Origin: Rathayibacter sp. VKM Ac-2879
GTDB taxonomy: Bacteria; Actinomycetota; Actinomycetes; Actinomycetales; Microbacteriaceae
Assembly (NCBI RefSeq): GCF_015351245.1
Contig: NZ_JADKSO010000003.1
Location: 310,001-374,000 of the forward strand
Direction of reading: 5' to 3'
DNA length: 64,000 nucleotides
In this document: one piece after another, positions 4,278 to 56,874 of the stretch
Position numbering within the stretch: position 1 is the first letter of the stretch
Layout of the letters: every line of letters begins with the position of its first letter
Made by a program: the position numbers and the translations under genes
Notes under the pieces: generated by a model
Database searches by the model: none
The model's input: only the letters and a program-made list of their open reading frames with translations
Told to the model about the DNA's origin: nothing

Positions 4278-4342
4278 CCCGCGAGATGCCACTTATGCGC
4301 ACCCGACACGGCGTGTCGTGCGCATAAGTGGCATCTCGCGGG
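4278..4342. repeat. Palindrome family 1, copy A (REP/MITE-like)
   Basis: Perfect 25-bp arms at 4278-4302 and 4318-4342 share the core GAGATGCCACTTATGCGC, around a 15-bp centre that itself holds GACAC/GTGTC. Two more copies occur at 53692-53756 and 56806-56874, in the same orientation judged by the shared GGCGTGTCG to the right of the centre. It lies between two minus-strand genes. Confidence 0.9.
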
Positions 4343-4367: not shown

Positions 4368-6893
4368 CTAGGCGGCTAGGGGGAGGGTGGAGGTGACGAC
4401 CAGCTCGCCGGCGAGCGCGTCGACGCGCACCGCGCCTCCGTCGGACACCTCGCCTGCGACGAACAGGTCGGCGATGCGGTCGTCGACCGAGCGCTGCACG
4501 AGCCGGCGCAGCGGGCGCGCCCCGTACTGCGGCTCGTAGCCGTGCTCGGCCAGCCAGTCGATCGCCGACTCCGTCACCTCGAGCGAGACCTCGCGCGGGG
4601 CGAGGCGGGCCCGGGTCGCGTCGAGCACGATCGAGACGATCTCGCGGAGCTGCTCACGACCGAGGCGGCGGAACAGCACGATCTCGTCGATGCGGTTCAG
4701 GAACTCGGGCCGCATCGCCTCGCGGAGGCGACCCATGACGCGATCGCGCAGGTCCTTCTCCGAGGCGAAGCCCTCGGCACGGTCGTCGCTGTGCGCGACG
4801 AAGCCGAGCGCTCCCGACCTCGACGCGAGGAACTCCGACCCGAGGTTCGAGGTCATGATGATCACCGTGTTGCGGAAGTCGACCGTCCGGCCCTGACCGT
4901 CGGTGAGACGCCCGTCGTCGAGCACCTGCAGCAGCAGGGTGAAGACGTCGGGATGCGCCTTCTCGATCTCATCGAAGAGGATCACGGAGTACGGGTTCCG
5001 CCGCACCCGCTCGGTGAGCTGGCCCGCCTCGTCGTAGCCGACGTACCCGGGAGGGGCACCGACCAGGCGGGAGACCGTGTGGCGCTCACCGAACTCGCTC
5101 ATGTCGAAGCGGATCACCGACTGCTCGTCGGCGAAGAGCGAGCCCGCGAGAGTCTTCGCCAACTCGGTCTTGCCCACTCCGGTCGGGCCGAGGAACAGGA
5201 ACGACCCGACCGGGCGCGACGCGTCGCCGAGCCCGGTGCGGCTGCGGCGCACGGCGCGGGCGACCGCGGTGACCGCGTCGTCCTGGCCGATCACGCGCTG
5301 GTGCAGCTCGGTCTCGAGCTGCGCGAGGCGGTCGCGCTCCCCCTCGGTCAGCCGCGACACCGGGATGCCGGTGGCACGGGCGATGACCGCAGCGATCTCG
5401 GTCTCGCCGACGACCGCCTCCGGAGTCGTGTGCCCGGTCGCGGCGTCGAGCTCGGACTGCACGGCGAGGATCTCGTCGCGCAGTCGCGACGCCTCCTCGT
5501 AGTGCTCGCCCGAGACGGCGGCGTTCTTGTCGGCCTCCAGCGTCGCCAGCTTCGCGAGAAGAGCGGCGGTGTCGGCCGCGGTGCCGAGTGTCAGGCGGAG
5601 GCGTGCCCCTGCCTGGTCGATCAGGTCGATCGCCTTGTCGGGCAGCACCCGGTCGGTGAGGTAGCGGGCCGAGAGCTCGACGGAGGCGCGGAGGGCTTCA
5701 TCGGTGTACCGCACGCGGTGGTGCTCCTCGTACGCCGGGCGCAGGCCGTGGAGGATCGCCACGGCATCCTCGACGCTCGGCTCGCCGACGCGGACGGGCT
5801 GGAAGCGGCGCTCGAGGGCCGGGTCCTTCTCGATCGTGCGGTACTCCTTGAGCGTCGTCGCACCGACGAGGTGCAGCTCGCCGCGAGCGAGGCGGGGCTT
5901 GAGGATGTTCCCCGCGTCCATGCCGCCCTCCCCGCCTCCGCCCGCGCCGACGACGGTGTGAACCTCGTCGACGAAGACGATCAGCTCGCCCGCGTGCGCG
6001 GCGATCTCGTCCATGGTTCCGGTGAGACGCTCCTCGAAGTCGCCGCGGTAGCGGGTGCCCGCCAGCATGGCCGGGAGGTCGAGCGAGACGACGCGCTTGC
6101 CGCGCAGTTGCTCGGGGACCTCCTCCGCCACGATCGCGCGGGCCAGGCCCTCGACGATCGCGGTCTTGCCGACGCCGGCCTCACCGACCAGCACCGGGTT
6201 GTTCTTGGTGCGGCGGCTGAGGATCTCGATGGTCTGCTCGATCTCGTCGGCGCGCCCGATCACGGGATCGAGTCGGCCCTCGCGGGCGAGGGCCGTGAGG
6301 TCGGTGCCGAACTTGTCGAGCAACGGGGTCTCGGAGGCGCGCTGCGCCGGCTCCTGCTGCGGCGGCGCCTCGGCCTCACGCATGCCCTGGGTGAGAGCCT
6401 CGGCGGTGACACCGGCGCGCGCGAGGACCTGCCCCGCGGGGGCGTCCTGACCGAGCACGAGCGCGAAGAAGAGGTGCTCGGGATCGATGTAGGTCGAGCC
6501 GCTGGAGCGAGCGACCTGATAGGCGTGGAACAGCGCACGCTGGGCGCTGTTCGTGATAGTCGCGGCGTTCTGCGAGGCACCGGACTCGGTGGCCTGAGGG
6601 AGGCGCGCCTCCGTCGCCGTCACGATGGCGCCCGGGTCGATGCCGACGCGGCGAATGGCCTGCGAGACGGCCTCGTCATCGACGAGGACCCGCAGCACGT
6701 GCAGGGCGTCGAGCTCGGTCTGGCCGCGCTCGAGGGCGAAGCGTCCTGCGGACTGCAGGATGCTCTGAGTGCGAGCGGTGAGGAAGCGGCTGAGGTCGAT
6801 CGATCGCGCTGCGCGGGCTCGCTCGCCCTCGAGGTAGCGAGCGAGGAAGTCGTCGAACGAGCTCGATCCGGCCTCGCTGAAGTTGTCGGGCAC
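4368..6893 (-). CDS. Clp/Hsp100 AAA+ ATPase, ClpC-like, heat-shock type
   Basis: An 841-residue unfoldase. The N-terminal Clp repeat domain (about 30-165) contains the paired alpha-helical repeats. AAA-1 has Walker A GEAGVGKT and AAA-2 has GPTGVGKT with [11 protein letters not shown]. The middle region is short and UVR-like ([11 protein letters not shown]), as in ClpC, rather than the long coiled coil of ClpB. It could feed ClpP or refold aggregates. Start is GTG at 6893 behind AGGAGGA. A HAIR operator at 6909-6929 implies HspR control, which in Actinobacteria is typical of clpB and dnaK. It is therefore either a heat-shock ClpC paralogue or a ClpB substitute. Confidence 0.92.
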
Positions 6894-9085: not shown

Positions 9086-9171
9086 GTTCACAACGTAGGA
9101 AGAATGCGGTCAACCGACACCGCTCAAGCGGATCGGAGCGGATTCTCCGAGGTTCTTCCTACGTTGTGAAC
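9086..9171. repeat. Long-arm inverted repeat between divergent genes
   Basis: Two perfect 19-bp arms, GTTCACAACGTAGGAAGAA at 9086-9104 and its complement at 9153-9171, are separated by 48 bp. The element sits between the divergent aldo/keto reductase and GNAT genes. No similar arm was seen elsewhere in the window. Confidence 0.85.
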
Positions 9172-52731: not shown

Positions 52732-53652
52732 TCAGCCCCGAGCGTGGAGCGAGATGCCGCCGCCGACCTCGGGAGTCGTCTCGTCGGCCACGAGCCGCGT
52801 CCAGCGACGCAGGACCGCTGCACCTGCCGCATCGTTCACGAGATCGTCGACGACGATCACGGGGTAAGGCTTCTCGGGCACGCCCTCGGCCGGGCGGACG
52901 TCGACGTGGGCGACGTCGTAGGCGTGCTCGAACAGCCAGTCGGCCATGGCGTAGTCGCTCCGGGAGTCGCCGACCGTCCGCCAGCGCTGCGGGATGGCGC
53001 CGGTCGCGCCGAGCAGCTCGACGGCGCGCTGGGCGCCGAGGTCCTTGCCGAGCCGGTTCGACTCGATGTCGGTGGAGATGACCGTGGGGTCGATGCGGTA
53101 GTCGACCGCCCCCCGATCGTTCGGGTAGCGGATGCCGCGGCGCTCGACTCCGAGGCCTGCCGCCGTCATGATCTGCAGGGCGTCGGCGTCGAAGACGAGC
53201 TGGCGCTCGAGGTAGTCCTCGCTGTCGAGGTCGACGAGTTGCTCGGCCGAGACCATCGCGCGCTTGGTCTCGTCGAAGAAGACGAGGTCGTCGTAGTCCT
53301 GGCGGATCATCCGCTCGAGATCGTCCGCGACGGCGGGCGGAATCGCCAGCGACCGGTCGACGATCGGCTCGGAGGTGCCGCGGTAGTCGACGGTGAACCA
53401 GACCGCGCCCTTCTCGCAGACGCACACGATGCGCGCCTCCGCCGAGACACCGCGCTCGAGCAGTGCCGGCAACACGCGCTCGCGCAGGAAAGCGTCGGAA
53501 CGCCCCGTGTTGAACACGATTGGGATCCCGGCGTTCGCGAGCGCGACGAGGTCGTCCGCGATCTCGGGGATCGCGATGGTACGGGTGATCGGGCTCGCGA
53601 TGGGCCCGTCGACGTCGAGGAGAAGGCCGAGCGGAGGAGGTGTGGCAGTCAT
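52732..53652 (-). CDS. HAD-superfamily-like protein, unknown substrate
   Basis: 306 residues. LLLDVDGPIASP near the N-terminus matches HAD motif I, with the DxDG pair of aspartates, and TVGDSRSDYAMADWLFEHA near 245 matches motif IV. VFNTGRSDAFL is the motif II Thr. It is therefore a probable phosphatase of the Cof/trehalose-phosphatase type. ATG at 53652 is chosen because the DVDG motif then lies at the usual depth. Family palindrome copy B is just upstream. Confidence 0.82.
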   Translation of the reverse strand: MTATPPPLGLLLDVDGPIASPITRTIAIPEIADDLVALANAGIPIVFNTGRSDAFLRERVLPALLERGVSAEARIVCVCEKGAVWFTVDYRGTSEPIVDRSLAIPPAVADDLERMIRQDYDDLVFFDETKRAMVSAEQLVDLDSEDYLERQLVFDADALQIMTAAGLGVERRGIRYPNDRGAVDYRIDPTVISTDIESNRLGKDLGAQRAVELLGATGAIPQRWRTVGDSRSDYAMADWLFEHAYDVAHVDVRPAEGVPEKPYPVIVVDDLVNDAAGAAVLRRWTRLVADETTPEVGGGISLHARG

Positions 53653-53691
53653 CGCGCACCATTCTGCCGTGCCGGACGCGCGGTGAGCACC

Positions 53692-53756
53692 GCCGCGAGA
53701 TGCCACTTGTGCGCGGCTTTACCGGCGTGTCGTGCGCACAAGTGGCATCTCGCGGC
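53692..53756. repeat. Palindrome family 1, copy B
   Basis: Perfect 23-bp arms at 53692-53714 and 53734-53756. The core reads GAGATGCCACTTGTGCGC; the A-to-G change relative to copy A is matched by the complementary change in the other arm. It sits between two minus-strand genes. Confidence 0.9.
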
Positions 53757-53759
53757 GGG

Positions 53760-56645
53760 TCAGCGCGGCTGGCGGCGGGGGCGGCGAGCGAGGAGGAGGG
53801 AGATGAGGCCCAGGGCGACGGCGGCTCCCGAGAAGAGCAGCCACGGGGCGGGCTCCGTGCCCGTCGAGGCGAGGCCGCCAGAGTCCGCGGGCCCCGCGAT
53901 CGGAACGGCGGTCGGCTCGGGGCTCGTGGTGGGGCCGGGGTCGACGGTGGGCTCCGGTGACGGCCCGGGGGCGGCCGTGGGGTCCGGCGTCGGAGTCGGC
54001 TCCGGACTCGGGGTCGGCTCCGGCGTCGCCGTCGGGGTCGGGGTCGGCTCCGGAGTCGTCGGGAGCGTGACGGCCGCGCCCTCCGGCGCCACCGCGAGCA
54101 GCGCCCGAGCGAGGTCGCTGAACGCACCGACAGGGTGGTTGCGAAAGACCGGTGACGTGCCGAAGAGGAACCCCTCAGTGCCCGACGCCGTCGAGAACGA
54201 GACGGCCGAGGGCTGCCCGGCCGCATCCCCCCTGGACCCGCCCTCGGAGTCGACCCAGTGCCCAGCGAGCAAGGTGCGGTCCACGGCATATCTCTGCTCG
54301 ACGACGACGGAGCTGTCGAGGTCCGAGAACCAGAACGCCGGCGAGACGAAGGCGGTGTCCTGCGGATAGTCGCCGAGCACACCCTCGGCCGGAGTCTCGA
54401 CCGAGACGATGCCGTTGGAGCCCCACGTGCCGCCCCGCAGGGCAAGGCCCGCGAGACCGAAGTCGGACACGAACGCGGCCCCCGCCTCTCCGCGGCCGAC
54501 CACGTCGCCGCCCCTCGCGAGGAACGCCTCCACGGCGGCGCGCCCCGCGGACTGCTCAGGACTGAACCAGAGCGGACTTCCGACGAAGAGAACATCGACG
54601 CCCTCCAGCGAGACGGCCCCCGAGACGAGGGAGTCGGCGGAGATCGCGACGGTGTCGGTGAAGCCCAGCTTGGCCAGAGCATCGCGGTCCTCGTGCGTGC
54701 CGGAGAAGGCGATACGGAGGGCATCGAGGGCCGTGCCATCCTCGGCGCGCACCCGGTCGGCCGTTGTCGCGGTGAAGTCGACTCCGAAGACGGCGGCGGC
54801 CTGCTCGGCCGCGCGCCGCCCGACCGCATCGGCATGGAGGGCGATGGTGCCGTCCTCGAACTGCTCGAGGGCGACTCCGTCGGCGAGGAGCGCCGTGACC
54901 GCCTGGTACTCCAAGACGCCGCGAGGCTCGAAGGCGAGGTATTCCCCCGCGGGGACCGAACCCGTCGGAGCGACCGCGGTCACCGGCTCAAGGCCGATCG
55001 GCGGCAGCTCGTCCGTCGTGGATCCGATCGCCGCGACATCGGCACCCCAGAGGAGCGAGAGACTCCAGGCCGAGACGTCGTACATCTCGGGAACCCGGCT
55101 CGAGATGTCACTGCCGTCGGCGAGGAGCACGTTGGCGAGCCCCCGCACCGGCTGATGCATGTCGACCAGATACGTGCCTGCAGGGTAGCTCGTGCCTGCG
55201 AGGGTGGTCGCCGAGGTCGTGCGCGACACCTCGACGCCGTGTGCCAGGAGCTGGGCGACGAGGGTCTCGGCGTCCGAGACGGAGCGCTGACGGTCGTCGA
55301 CGGGGATGACGTAGGCGCGCGGATACTCCGTCGCGGAGACGTCGGTCTCGTCCCAGATCTCGGTCCACTCGCTCGGCATGCCCTCAGGAAGATCGGCCGG
55401 GGTCACGTCGGCGGGGATCTCGACGGCAGGCGCACCGGTGACGCCACGCTCGAAGATCGCCGCCTGGTTGCCCAGCAGCGCGTCGCGGTGGGTGGCGACG
55501 TAGTCGACGGACGCGTCCATGACGATCCCGGCGACCTCGATGTCGATGTCGGCGTTCGCCTGGCCCTGCGCGACGTCATCGGTCCGGCCGAGGGGCAGCT
55601 CCACCGTGTTCGTGATCGCGCCCTGGAACGCGACGTACTGCGGCGCGAAGATGGGCGGCCAGTCGTCCCAGCCGGCGCGGATGTCGCGGTAGGGGATCAG
55701 GATCTTGCCTGTGTTCTCGGTCGTCGCGCTGCCGTCCGCGGCGAGGTAGGTGTTGCCGGGCACCTCGGCCTCGACCACGCGGCGCTCGACCTCGAGCGCG
55801 GTCGCGTAGGCGTGCGGGAGGAAGAGGTCGTACTCGTAGTTCTCCCCGTGCGGCGGCCCGCACGGCTCGACCTGGAGGATGCCGGTGTACCCGTGGAGGT
55901 CGATGAAGGAGATCGGCTGGAGCAGGCTCGACAGGTCGCGGATCACGGCGGCCTCGTTGGTCGCCCCGGTGATCATGTCGCGGTTCGGGTCGTAGCCGGC
56001 GGCCACGGCGCGCTGGCCGAGAGCCCGCCCATCGGGGTTGTTGGTGACGGTGAAGTAGAGGCGGTTGCCCTCGAGCAGAGCCGCTGTCTCGGGATCCTCG
56101 GCGGCGGCGAGACGCTCGATGTAGTCGAGGATCGCGTCGCTTCCCTCCCACTCGTTGCCGTGGATGTTGCCGTTGAACCAGAGAGGGAGCTTGTAACCCT
56201 CCCGCAGCTCCGTGTCGACGGCGGCAGCCGCGGGCTCATGCTTGAGCCGATCCCGCCACTCGGCCTGCTGGGCCGTCTCGGCGGCGGTCTCGGGAGCGGT
56301 GACGGTGACCAGGTAGATGTCGCGACCGAGACCGGACTTCCCGACCACCTGCGTCGAGACGCGGTCCGAGCGTTCCGTGAGCGCGTTGAGCTGCGGCGCA
56401 ATGGCGTCATAAGGCGTGACTCCGCGCACGAGAGAGGCGTCGCTCGGGTCGACCGGCACCTCCGTGAGCGGCACCTGCAGCGGGTAGCTGCTCGGCAGCG
56501 TGAGGGGCGCGGAGGCGGGGCGCACGAGGTCCACGCGGCTGTAGTCGGCGGAGGTCGTGGCGGTCGCGGGCGGCGTGACCAGCAGTCCGCCGGCGGCGAG
56601 CGCGAGCGCTGCGCCTCCCGAGACGAGGACGGTTCGAGATCTCAA
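53760..56645 (-). CDS. Secreted M14 zinc carboxypeptidase with C-terminal LAxTG wall-sorting signal
   Basis: About 961 residues. A TTG start at 56645, behind AAGGGAAG, gives a compact signal peptide ending near ATATTSA; an upstream GTG at 56696 would add 17 residues. The M14 catalytic domain follows with HGNE (zinc His and Glu) near residue 162 and the third His in IDLHGYTG. A middle region resembles a glutamine-amidotransferase-like fold (about 620-790). A Pro/Thr/Glu-rich repeat linker then leads to GGLASTG, a hydrophobic helix and RRPRRQPR, the layout for sortase E. Predicted to be wall-anchored, acting on peptides or cell-wall peptides. Confidence 0.9.
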   Translation of the reverse strand: MRSRTVLVSGGAALALAAGGLLVTPPATATTSADYSRVDLVRPASAPLTLPSSYPLQVPLTEVPVDPSDASLVRGVTPYDAIAPQLNALTERSDRVSTQVVGKSGLGRDIYLVTVTAPETAAETAQQAEWRDRLKHEPAAAAVDTELREGYKLPLWFNGNIHGNEWEGSDAILDYIERLAAAEDPETAALLEGNRLYFTVTNNPDGRALGQRAVAAGYDPNRDMITGATNEAAVIRDLSSLLQPISFIDLHGYTGILQVEPCGPPHGENYEYDLFLPHAYATALEVERRVVEAEVPGNTYLAADGSATTENTGKILIPYRDIRAGWDDWPPIFAPQYVAFQGAITNTVELPLGRTDDVAQGQANADIDIEVAGIVMDASVDYVATHRDALLGNQAAIFERGVTGAPAVEIPADVTPADLPEGMPSEWTEIWDETDVSATEYPRAYVIPVDDRQRSVSDAETLVAQLLAHGVEVSRTTSATTLAGTSYPAGTYLVDMHQPVRGLANVLLADGSDISSRVPEMYDVSAWSLSLLWGADVAAIGSTTDELPPIGLEPVTAVAPTGSVPAGEYLAFEPRGVLEYQAVTALLADGVALEQFEDGTIALHADAVGRRAAEQAAAVFGVDFTATTADRVRAEDGTALDALRIAFSGTHEDRDALAKLGFTDTVAISADSLVSGAVSLEGVDVLFVGSPLWFSPEQSAGRAAVEAFLARGGDVVGRGEAGAAFVSDFGLAGLALRGGTWGSNGIVSVETPAEGVLGDYPQDTAFVSPAFWFSDLDSSVVVEQRYAVDRTLLAGHWVDSEGGSRGDAAGQPSAVSFSTASGTEGFLFGTSPVFRNHPVGAFSDLARALLAVAPEGAAVTLPTTPEPTPTPTATPEPTPSPEPTPTPDPTAAPGPSPEPTVDPGPTTSPEPTAVPIAGPADSGGLASTGTEPAPWLLFSGAAVALGLISLLLARRPRRQPR

Positions 56646-56805: not shown

Positions 56806-56874
56806 CCTCCGCGAGATGCCACTTATGCGCACGTCCGTCGGCGTGTCGCGCGCATAAGTGGCATCTCGCGGAGG
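56806..56874. repeat. Palindrome family 1, copy C
   Basis: Perfect 25-bp arms at 56806-56830 and 56850-56874, with flanks CCTCC/GGAGG that differ from copies A and B but remain complementary. It lies in the 277-bp region between divergent genes, where a terminator is not expected. No reading frame is accepted in that region. Confidence 0.9.

What the first reader, a model, noticed from the sequence alone, without database searches (positions are those of the whole stretch)
4278..4342. Three dispersed intergenic palindromes with covarying arms (4278-4342, 53692-53756, 56806-56874)
Each element has perfect 23-25 bp arms around a 15-19 bp centre and shares the core GAGATGCCACTT(A/G)TGCGC. The outer flanks differ (CCC, GCC, CCTCC) and one core base differs (A/G), yet both arms change together, so self-complementarity is preserved. 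All three have the same orientation. One lies between divergent genes, so they are not simply terminators. This fits a REP/MITE-like family spread as hairpins, possibly by a RAYT-type transposase elsewhere in the genome, or a conserved structured RNA/DNA site.
Basis: seen in the sequence. Interest (0 to 1): 0.8.

Follow-up and report, generated by a model that had tools for sequence, protein, structure and literature searches.

The report
Dispersed palindromes paired with nuclease gene
The three perfect DNA palindromes belong to a large repeat family scattered behind genes in Rathayibacter-type bacteria, and in related genomes matching palindromes bracket a gene for a Vsr-like DNA-cutting enzyme, suggesting a partnership that works like the known REP/RAYT repeats but with a different enzyme.

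Summary
The three palindromes are real and far beyond chance. They share a 57-bp core, CGAGATGCC-N39-GGCATCTCG. The tip pattern (gap 25-55) has 90 and 93 matches in the two genomes whose loci are named Rathayibacter. Copies sit behind genes: median 17 bp from a stop codon, 61 of 140 between convergent genes. No RAYT-type transposase reached cut-off (0 of 15 and 0 of 11 genomes).

What is linked is a PD-(D/E)XK, Vsr-like endonuclease (DUF559/MTES_1575) with an AbiEi-like front half. Same-arm palindromes lie on both sides of 54 of 82 such genes, or 48 of 76 leaving out loci fetched through palindromes. Mispaired flanks gave a mean of 2.2 of 82; ordinary genes 3 of 219. The window's arm type flanks one orthologous nuclease locus in six Rathayibacter genomes. 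A second arm family occurs only where its cassette is (6 of 15 genomes).

Best reading: a REP-like system of Actinomycetes, unreported as far as my searches show, with a Vsr-like nuclease in RAYT's role. That the nuclease acts on the palindromes is inferred. The window's own genome is not held, so its nuclease could not be checked.

The parts
4278..4342 (.). Palindrome 1: perfect 25-bp arms, 15-bp centre; 57-bp core CGAGATGCC...GGCATCTCG at 4282-4338; between tandem minus-strand genes, 25 bp from the stop end of the gene call 4368-6893
   Evidence: occupied at the corresponding place in 5 of 5 relatives compared (placed by coordinates of the aligned blocks)
53690..53758 (.). Palindrome 2: perfect 25-bp arms, 19-bp centre; 57-bp core at 53696-53752; right behind the stop of gene call 53760-56645 (-) and upstream of gene call 52732-53652 (-)
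   Evidence: occupied in G001, G002, G009, G011, diverged copies in G004, G006, G005, empty in G007 and G014
56806..56874 (.). Palindrome 3: 28-nt arms with one mismatch, 13-bp centre; 57-bp core at 56812-56868; between divergent gene calls
   Evidence: occupied in G001, G002, G009, G011, not in G005
4309..4318 (-). Directional loop motif of palindrome 1 (CGGCGTGTCG on the + strand, i.e. CGACACGCCG on the - strand); reversed relative to the 5 copies at the corresponding place
   Evidence: orientation in relatives read by eye
53723..53732 (-). Directional loop motif of palindrome 2 (CGGCGTGTCG on +)
56839..56848 (-). Directional loop motif of palindrome 3 (CGGCGTGTCG on +)

Best explanation
The palindromes are copies of a REP-like repeat whose partner is not a RAYT but a two-part protein: an AbiEi-like front half and a Vsr-like PD-(D/E)XK (DUF559/MTES_1575) nuclease. 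Shown by computation: in relatives the nuclease gene often stands in a cassette of about 1.1 kb, bracketed by two palindromes with the same arms; lineages have their own arms; further copies are scattered in the genome, mostly behind genes; for a second arm family, copies occur only in genomes with the cassette; the nuclease's active-site residues are conserved; in Rathayibacter the gene evolves faster than its neighbours at one fixed locus. Inferred: the nuclease recognises its palindrome (as duplex inverted repeat or extruded hairpin), nicks it, and repair or replication from the nick copies the palindrome to new places and keeps its arms matched. Copies survive mostly behind stop codons because insertions elsewhere are harmful, and there they form strong 3'-end hairpins for one or both neighbouring genes.
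For: Same-arm palindromes on both sides in 54 of 82 group-A nuclease genes; 48 of 76 leaving out six loci fetched through palindromes; family and class samples, drawn by protein score, 17 of 28 and 19 of 27. Controls: mispaired flanks mean 2.17, max 7 of 82; ordinary genes with the same settings 3 of 219, the three with shared arms of simple GC-rich type in two cases, plus one flagged gene that is itself a DUF559 gene; with the narrower settings, 28 of 43 against 0 of 220 ordinary genes. The window's arm type flanks the nuclease at one orthologous locus in G001, G002, G005, G008, G009 and G013. Second arm family CCGAGAAGGC: 6 of 15 Rathayibacter genomes, each with two copies 964 or 984 bp apart (the cassette) and 0-3 others. 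Another family in G317 has four palindromes away from its cassette. Arm similarity follows protein identity: 0.01 of pairs alike below 40% identity, 0.68-0.82 above 60%; 0 of 1000 permutations reach the correlation. E193, D226, E237 and H243 in 52-53 of 54. dN/dS 0.14-0.54. Nuclease nucleotide identity 0.58-0.87 vs 0.84-0.96 in flanks. Empty sites for a dispersed copy in G007 and G014.
Against: No cleavage, binding or transposition was shown. The window's genome is not held, and no group-A gene lies in the window. 28 of 82 group-A genes lack same-arm palindromes on both sides at my threshold. The 82 are not independent: two orthologous loci give 12 of the 54, and the profile was built from ten bracketed genes. 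Copy number does not simply follow the gene: G008 has the window-type cassette but only 4 matches to the tip pattern. No target-site duplication of 3 nt or more (0 of 140). The cassettes compared sit at fixed loci in Rathayibacter, so the cassette itself is not shown to move. The closest protein has the best-matching arms in only 12 of 54 cases. Vertical co-inheritance could produce the arm-protein correlation. Proximity to stops would also fit host-selected terminators.
Confidence: 0.6

Rival explanations
1. Host-selected bidirectional 3'-end hairpins: the palindromes end or stabilise transcripts of neighbouring, often convergent, genes, and insulate the nuclease gene on both sides.
For: 61 of 140 convergent against 19% of intergenic bases, 7 divergent against 28%; median 17 bp to stops. 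Element plus remainder in convergent gaps (median 36 + 57 bp) is about as long as gaps without an element (median 96.5 bp). Strong RNA folds. Loop orientation ignores gene direction, 23 same and 19 opposite.
Against: No TTTT within 20 nt after the core, nor AAAA before it, in 0 of 140. Terminators need not share one 57-bp sequence per genome, nor the arms that flank the nuclease. Only 3 of 219 ordinary genes are bracketed by palindromes sharing 10 nt.
Confidence: 0.2
2. Operator sites: the AbiEi-like half binds the palindromes to control its own gene, and dispersed copies are a regulon or a sink for the protein.
For: Weak AbiEi matches in PADLOC for some of the 10 aligned proteins. A palindrome lies upstream of the gene, median 106.5 bp before the profile start.
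Against: A second palindrome sits behind the gene, median 7 bp from the stop. Dispersed copies lie mostly behind genes, not before them.
Confidence: 0.1
3. Covariation made by mutation alone: template switching at quasi-palindromes (a mechanism recalled, not looked up) keeps arms matched and flips loops, with no selection on structure and no enzyme.
For: Loop orientation differs between copies at corresponding places (palindrome 1 in the window, site 3 in G011; read). Outer-flank pairing is no more than composition gives.
Against: Does not explain shared arms at the two ends of nuclease genes, spread to tens of copies, or copies confined to genomes with the cassette.
Confidence: 0.05
4. RAYT-mobilised REP/REPIN or a DDE-type MITE.
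For: Dispersed extragenic palindromes with tens of copies. The two bases on either side of the core are identical in 100 of 140; in the listings they are mostly CG or AT, themselves palindromic, so a 2-bp duplication cannot be told from a longer stem.
Against: PF01797 not over cut-off in 15 and 11 genomes; no consistent GTAG head and no duplication of 3 nt or more; no transposase recognised among the proteins encoded between close element pairs (by eye from protein starts; only two were scanned with Pfam).
Confidence: 0.03

Closest known systems
REP sequences with RAYT (REP-associated tyrosine transposases), PMC2817692 (abstract and passages read)
   Same: Gene bracketed by two palindromes; further copies scattered outside genes; arms go with the protein; gene evolves faster than neighbours; gene presence and copies linked (here shown for one arm family).
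   Different: Enzyme is PD-(D/E)XK DUF559 with AbiEi-like front, not Y1/HUH; no consistent GTAG head; palindromes 36-72 bp in my scan rather than 20-40; ends inverted in 19 of 35 decidable cassettes, while the paper says always inverted.
CGTC-tagged REPs without a linked transposase, PMC3733652 (passages read)
   Same: Dispersed palindromes without a linked RAYT.
   Different: No consistent CGTC tag (23 of 140 within 12 nt of either end); here a specific nuclease gene is linked. The main text has 0 occurrences of Actinobacteria.
DUF559 / Vsr-like endonucleases such as VsrA of Caulobacter, PMC12907096 (passages read)
   Same: Same DUF559 PD-(D/E)XK domain; VsrA is responsible for an SOS response in cells lacking a methyltransferase.
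   Different: The main text has 0 occurrences of 'palindrom'; the AbiEi-like front half was not compared.
Endonuclease annotated as mobile intron protein (PDB 3r3p)
   Same: Weak profile match of the nuclease domain, E = 0.011.
   Different: No intron known here; the protein is longer and bracketed by palindromes.
ERIC, Correia and similar MITE-like intergenic palindromes (recalled)
   Same: Short palindromic intergenic repeats.
   Different: Fixed 57-bp core, no duplication of 3 nt or more, a linked nuclease gene of its own.

Membership tests
REP/RAYT system | Y1 (HUH) tyrosine transposase gene in the genome, flanked by REPs | tested here: not met
   PF01797: 0 of 15 at E 0.001; 0 of 11 over cut-off, one at E = 0.145 below it. 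Control rang in 5 and 10 of 14 known genomes. Not testable in the window's own genome
REP/RAYT system | Conserved GTAG-type head next to the stem | tested here: not met
   GTAG within 12 nt of either end in 4 of 140
REP/RAYT system | Tens to hundreds of extragenic copies | tested here: met
   90, 93, 72, 52 matches; 138 of 140 outside called genes
REP/RAYT system | Associated gene bracketed by two copies of its repeat | tested here: met
   54 of 82, 48 of 76 unselected, but with a different protein
REP/RAYT system | Gene presence correlates with repeat abundance | tested here: inconclusive
   Second arm family: 6 of 6 genomes with copies have the cassette. Window type: G008 has the cassette but 4 matches; gene presence not tested in all 15
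DDE-type MITE | Target-site duplication and terminal repeats of a parent IS | tested here: inconclusive
   0 of 140 with identical 3, 4, 5, 6 or 8 nt on both sides; 2 nt identical in 100 of 140, ambiguous with stem pairing; no parent IS was searched for
Intrinsic terminator | G+C-rich stem followed by a T-run | tested here: not met
   Stem present; TTTT within 20 nt after the core in 0 of 140, AAAA before it in 0 of 140
DUF559 / MTES_1575 endonuclease (Pfam) | Profile match and PD-(D/E)XK residues | tested here: met
   10 of 10 match PF18741 and PF04480 at E 0.01; the first member is over Pfam's cut-off for PF04480 (26.2 vs 20.6 bits) and under it for PF18741 (31.4 vs 38.2); E, D, E, H conserved
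AbiEi antitoxin | AbiEi domain and a partner AbiEii toxin gene | tested here: inconclusive
   Weak PADLOC AbiEi matches in some of 10; partner gene not searched
Known Rfam RNA | Match above a gathering score | tested here: not met
   0 matches in the window

The most novel reading that the evidence does not exclude
Actinomycetes have a second, independent kind of REP system, in which a Vsr-like nuclease both spreads and repairs its palindrome. The enzyme recognises mismatches (such as G-T) in the extruded hairpin of its own family, nicks there, and resynthesis copies one arm from the other. This would make palindromes self-perfecting and explain matched arms, flipped loops, one arm sequence per lineage and the fast evolution of the nuclease.
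Probability: 0.25. Interest if true: 0.95.

Novelty: categorically new. Interest (0 to 1): 0.85.

Why it matters
If true, a widespread gene family matching only DUF559 and AbiEi-like profiles (group A found in 183 of 296 sampled genomes of the class) gets a partner and a testable substrate. Bacterial palindrome families would no longer depend on one kind of enzyme: an unrelated nuclease would have arrived at the same gene-plus-repeats design. Genomes carry natural pairs of enzyme and palindrome, so recognition can be tested directly by swapping palindromes in a test tube.

Tried and rejected
RAYT/Y1 transposase: searched twice, none over cut-off. Rfam: no match. Plasmids (two element queries) and phages (one): no match. 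Viral contigs: 45 stretches with the 16-nt arm pattern, none with a whole element at up to 6 mismatches; 8 stretches with the tip pattern were not examined; no relative of the group-A protein. Class-wide, besides G001 only five of 394 genomes have the tip pattern, once each, and one of them (G155) was also in the family sample. Loop orientation against gene direction: no bias. Outer-flank covariation: no more than composition. I first took group-B DUF559 genes as negative controls, 0 of 10 flanked at a strict threshold. A looser test found palindromes with 13-17 nt shared arms and 79-90 bp overall at 5 of them, so they are not controls. From one search's list I count 16 true group-B genes by their loci; that list came from a loose motif and also holds unrelated ORFs. 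My first control (narrower settings) flagged 1 of 221 genes, a group-B DUF559 gene; repeated with the settings it flagged 4 of 220: that gene and three ordinary ones. My automatic scan misses imperfect pairs (for example L297, L319, L320, L337, L349). Structure prediction was not run, because the group-A proteins come from loci that the tool does not accept. Literature: ten searches listed no paper on DUF559 with palindromes as far as titles and abstract starts show. I read only three papers, in parts; most subscription journals are not held.

Full report
OBSERVATION. Their arms are perfect over 25 bp at 4278-4342 and 53690-53758, and 28 nt with one mismatch at 56806-56874. The arm motif occurs six times in the window against 0.07 expected. 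All three contain the same 57-bp frame, CGAGATGCC-N39-GGCATCTCG, and the loop motif CGGCGTGTCG in one orientation. Folded as RNA they give -57.6, -57.9 and -57.9 kcal/mol, better than all 200 shuffles each.

SPREAD. The window's own genome is not held. An exact long pattern in the genome collection hit two contigs, both Rathayibacter. Their whole genomes (G001, G002) have 90 and 93 matches to the tip pattern with a gap of 25-55. Among 15 genomes of the genus, the 15-mer arm GAGATGCCACTTNTG occurs 86/85, 79/82, 79/83, 61/62, 34/34 and 16/14 times (forward/reverse) in six, and 0-2 times per strand in nine, with 0 in the reversed control. In 398 Microbacteriaceae, 29 match the tip pattern, some only once and probably by chance; the reversed control is 0 in all. 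Lineages differ in their inner arms (for example ACTTTCCGTCCC in G317, ACCTGGTGC in G082), while the 57-bp length is kept in nearly all listed family-like matches (lists are capped); G350 and G287 have 56 bp. With the gap fixed and two mismatches allowed, G317 has 37, G082 42 and G283 20, control 0. In a class-wide sample of 394 genomes only G001 has many copies and five have one.

POSITION. With my own gene caller, 140 elements from eight genomes and the window fell 61 between convergent, 70 between tandem and 7 between divergent genes, 2 inside calls. Intergenic bases in the same loci split 19, 53 and 28%. The median distance to a stop is 17 bp and to a start 73 bp. Most of these loci were chosen because they hold elements, and 2 of the 140 are duplicates (138 distinct). 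Loop orientation does not follow gene direction (23 vs 19). No element has TTTT within 20 nt after it or AAAA before it (0 of 140).

CONSERVATION AND EMPTY SITES. Corresponding stretches of five genomes show palindrome 1 in 5 of 5, and palindromes 2 and 3 in 4 of 5 (placed by the coordinates of aligned blocks). At site 3 the four relatives have 1.7-3.0 kb more DNA on the right, so the divergent setting in the window may be due to a missing gene. At site 2 diverged copies occur in G004, G006 and G005; G007 and G014, which keep the same right-hand gene, are empty. Other genomes have no element in the printed stretch but also other neighbours. The loop is reversed in the window's palindrome 1 and in G011 at site 3, read by eye.

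COVARIATION. Among 138 distinct elements, several core positions use three or four kinds of Watson-Crick pair (for example pair 14/44: GC, TA, AT; pair 18/40: four kinds). Pairing is 81-100% at the outer 17 pairs and 75-85% at pairs 18-20. The set was chosen by pairing (at least 15 of 20) and by tips, which raises these figures. Identical flanking bases: 2 nt in 100 of 140, mostly CG or AT in the listings and so ambiguous with stem pairing; 3 nt or more in 0 of 140.

THE LINKED GENE. No Y1 transposase was over cut-off. I looked at the genes lying between closely spaced elements. In two genomes, G317 and G005, such a gene encodes a related protein with DUF559/MTES_1575 matches. DUF559 genes in 11 genomes were then examined, and many had same-arm palindromes on both sides, of other arm families too. 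Ten such proteins were aligned (A1). All ten match PF18741 and PF04480, some weakly match AbiEi profiles, and the best solved relative is 3hrl (E = 1.1e-4) followed by 3r3p, a mobile intron protein (E = 0.011). At E 1e-20 the profile matches in 83 of 120 Microbacteriaceae and 183 of 296 class genomes.

TEST OF THE LINK. In all held loci, 82 group-A genes have full flanks. 54 have palindromes on both sides sharing at least 10 nt of arm: 18 of 27 in element-bearing genomes, 17 of 28 in the family sample and 19 of 27 in the class sample, the last two being the loci returned for the best protein matches. Six of the 18 (L132, L177, L231, L339, L342, L343) had been fetched through palindromes; without them it is 48 of 76. 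Orthologs count apart, and the profile itself comes from bracketed genes. Re-pairing upstream flanks with other genes' downstream flanks gave a mean of 2.17, maximum 7 of 82. Control genes with the same settings: 4 of 220 flagged, of which one is a group-B DUF559 gene in L301, so 3 of 219 ordinary genes. With the narrower settings it was 28 of 43 against 1 of 221, that one again the L301 gene. Group-B DUF559 genes also have palindromes, longer and with other arms, in 5 cases. The cassette is 1000-1517 bp, median 1093; the downstream palindrome starts a median 7 bp after the stop; ends are inverted in 19, direct in 16 and undecided in 19. By loop motif, 5 of 6 Rathayibacter cassettes are inverted.

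PAIRING OF ENZYME AND REPEAT. The second arm family, CCGAGAAGGC, is in 6 of 15 Rathayibacter genomes with 2-5 copies; in all six two copies are 964 or 984 bp apart, at one orthologous place. The window-type cassette is also at one orthologous place in G001, G002, G005, G008, G009 and G013; the other nine genomes were not tested for it. In G317 the L296 family has four further palindromes in 210 kb of held sequence, while two other cassette families there showed none. Protein identity and arm similarity are correlated (rank correlation 0.18, 0 of 1000 permutations), though the nearest protein has the best arms in only 12 of 54 cases. The nuclease is under purifying selection (dN/dS 0.14-0.54) but diverges faster than its flanks (0.58-0.87 vs 0.84-0.96 identity). 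The RAYT paper reports coevolution and fast evolution for RAYT genes too (PMC2817692, abstract).

HOW IT MOST LIKELY WORKS. Shown: bracketing, lineage-specific arms, dispersal behind genes, conserved active site, fast evolution at a fixed locus, occupied and empty sites. Inferred: recognition and nicking of the palindrome by the nuclease, copying to new places, upkeep of matched arms, and an effect on 3' ends of transcripts. That a DUF559 protein can damage DNA in cells is supported by VsrA of Caulobacter (PMC12907096, passages). The mismatch idea in the novel case rests on Vsr recognising T-G mismatches, as described there for E. coli Vsr.

COMPARISON AND VERDICT. It works like REP/RAYT but fails that family's defining tests (enzyme, GTAG head), so it is not filed there. 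My searches found no report of the pairing (listed under Tried and rejected), within an open-access library. I rate it categorically new because the linked enzyme belongs to an unrelated superfamily. The association itself I hold at about 0.95; the claim that the nuclease drives the palindromes at 0.6.

Noticed in passing
L261, L269, L271, L281, L301: Group-B DUF559 genes bracketed by longer palindromes (79-90 bp, arms such as ACCGAATCAAGGAGTT); L261 and L271, from different genomes, share nearly the same arms.
   Followed up: partly
L167:1575, L179:5141, L180:5176, L184:1963, L185:2418 (G317): A second 57-bp palindrome type with tips CGAATTGCC in the same genome; its nuclease cassette was not identified.
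   Followed up: no
L110, L112, L117, L120 (G009, G011, G001, G002): A group-A gene in the region that corresponds to the window, without same-arm palindromes on both sides; in G001 it has an in-frame stop, which suggests decay.
   Followed up: partly
L179 and L180 (G317 contigs C3 and C4): Two loci on different contigs hold identical palindromes, printed flanks and gene spacing, so a segment of at least 2 kb seems duplicated.
   Followed up: no
L354-L369 (class sample): Cassettes in the class sample have palindromes of recurrent types such as CATGGAGAA and GTTGATCATGG; dispersed copies there were not counted.
   Followed up: no
window 9086-9104 and 9153-9171: A perfect 19-bp inverted repeat (GTTCACAACGTAGGAAGAA) with 48 bp between the arms.
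   Followed up: no
G011 flank of cassette 2 (L342): Several stretches of about 42 bp beside the second-family cassette match one stretch of the G001 flank, so a short repeat seems to be present in several copies.
   Followed up: no
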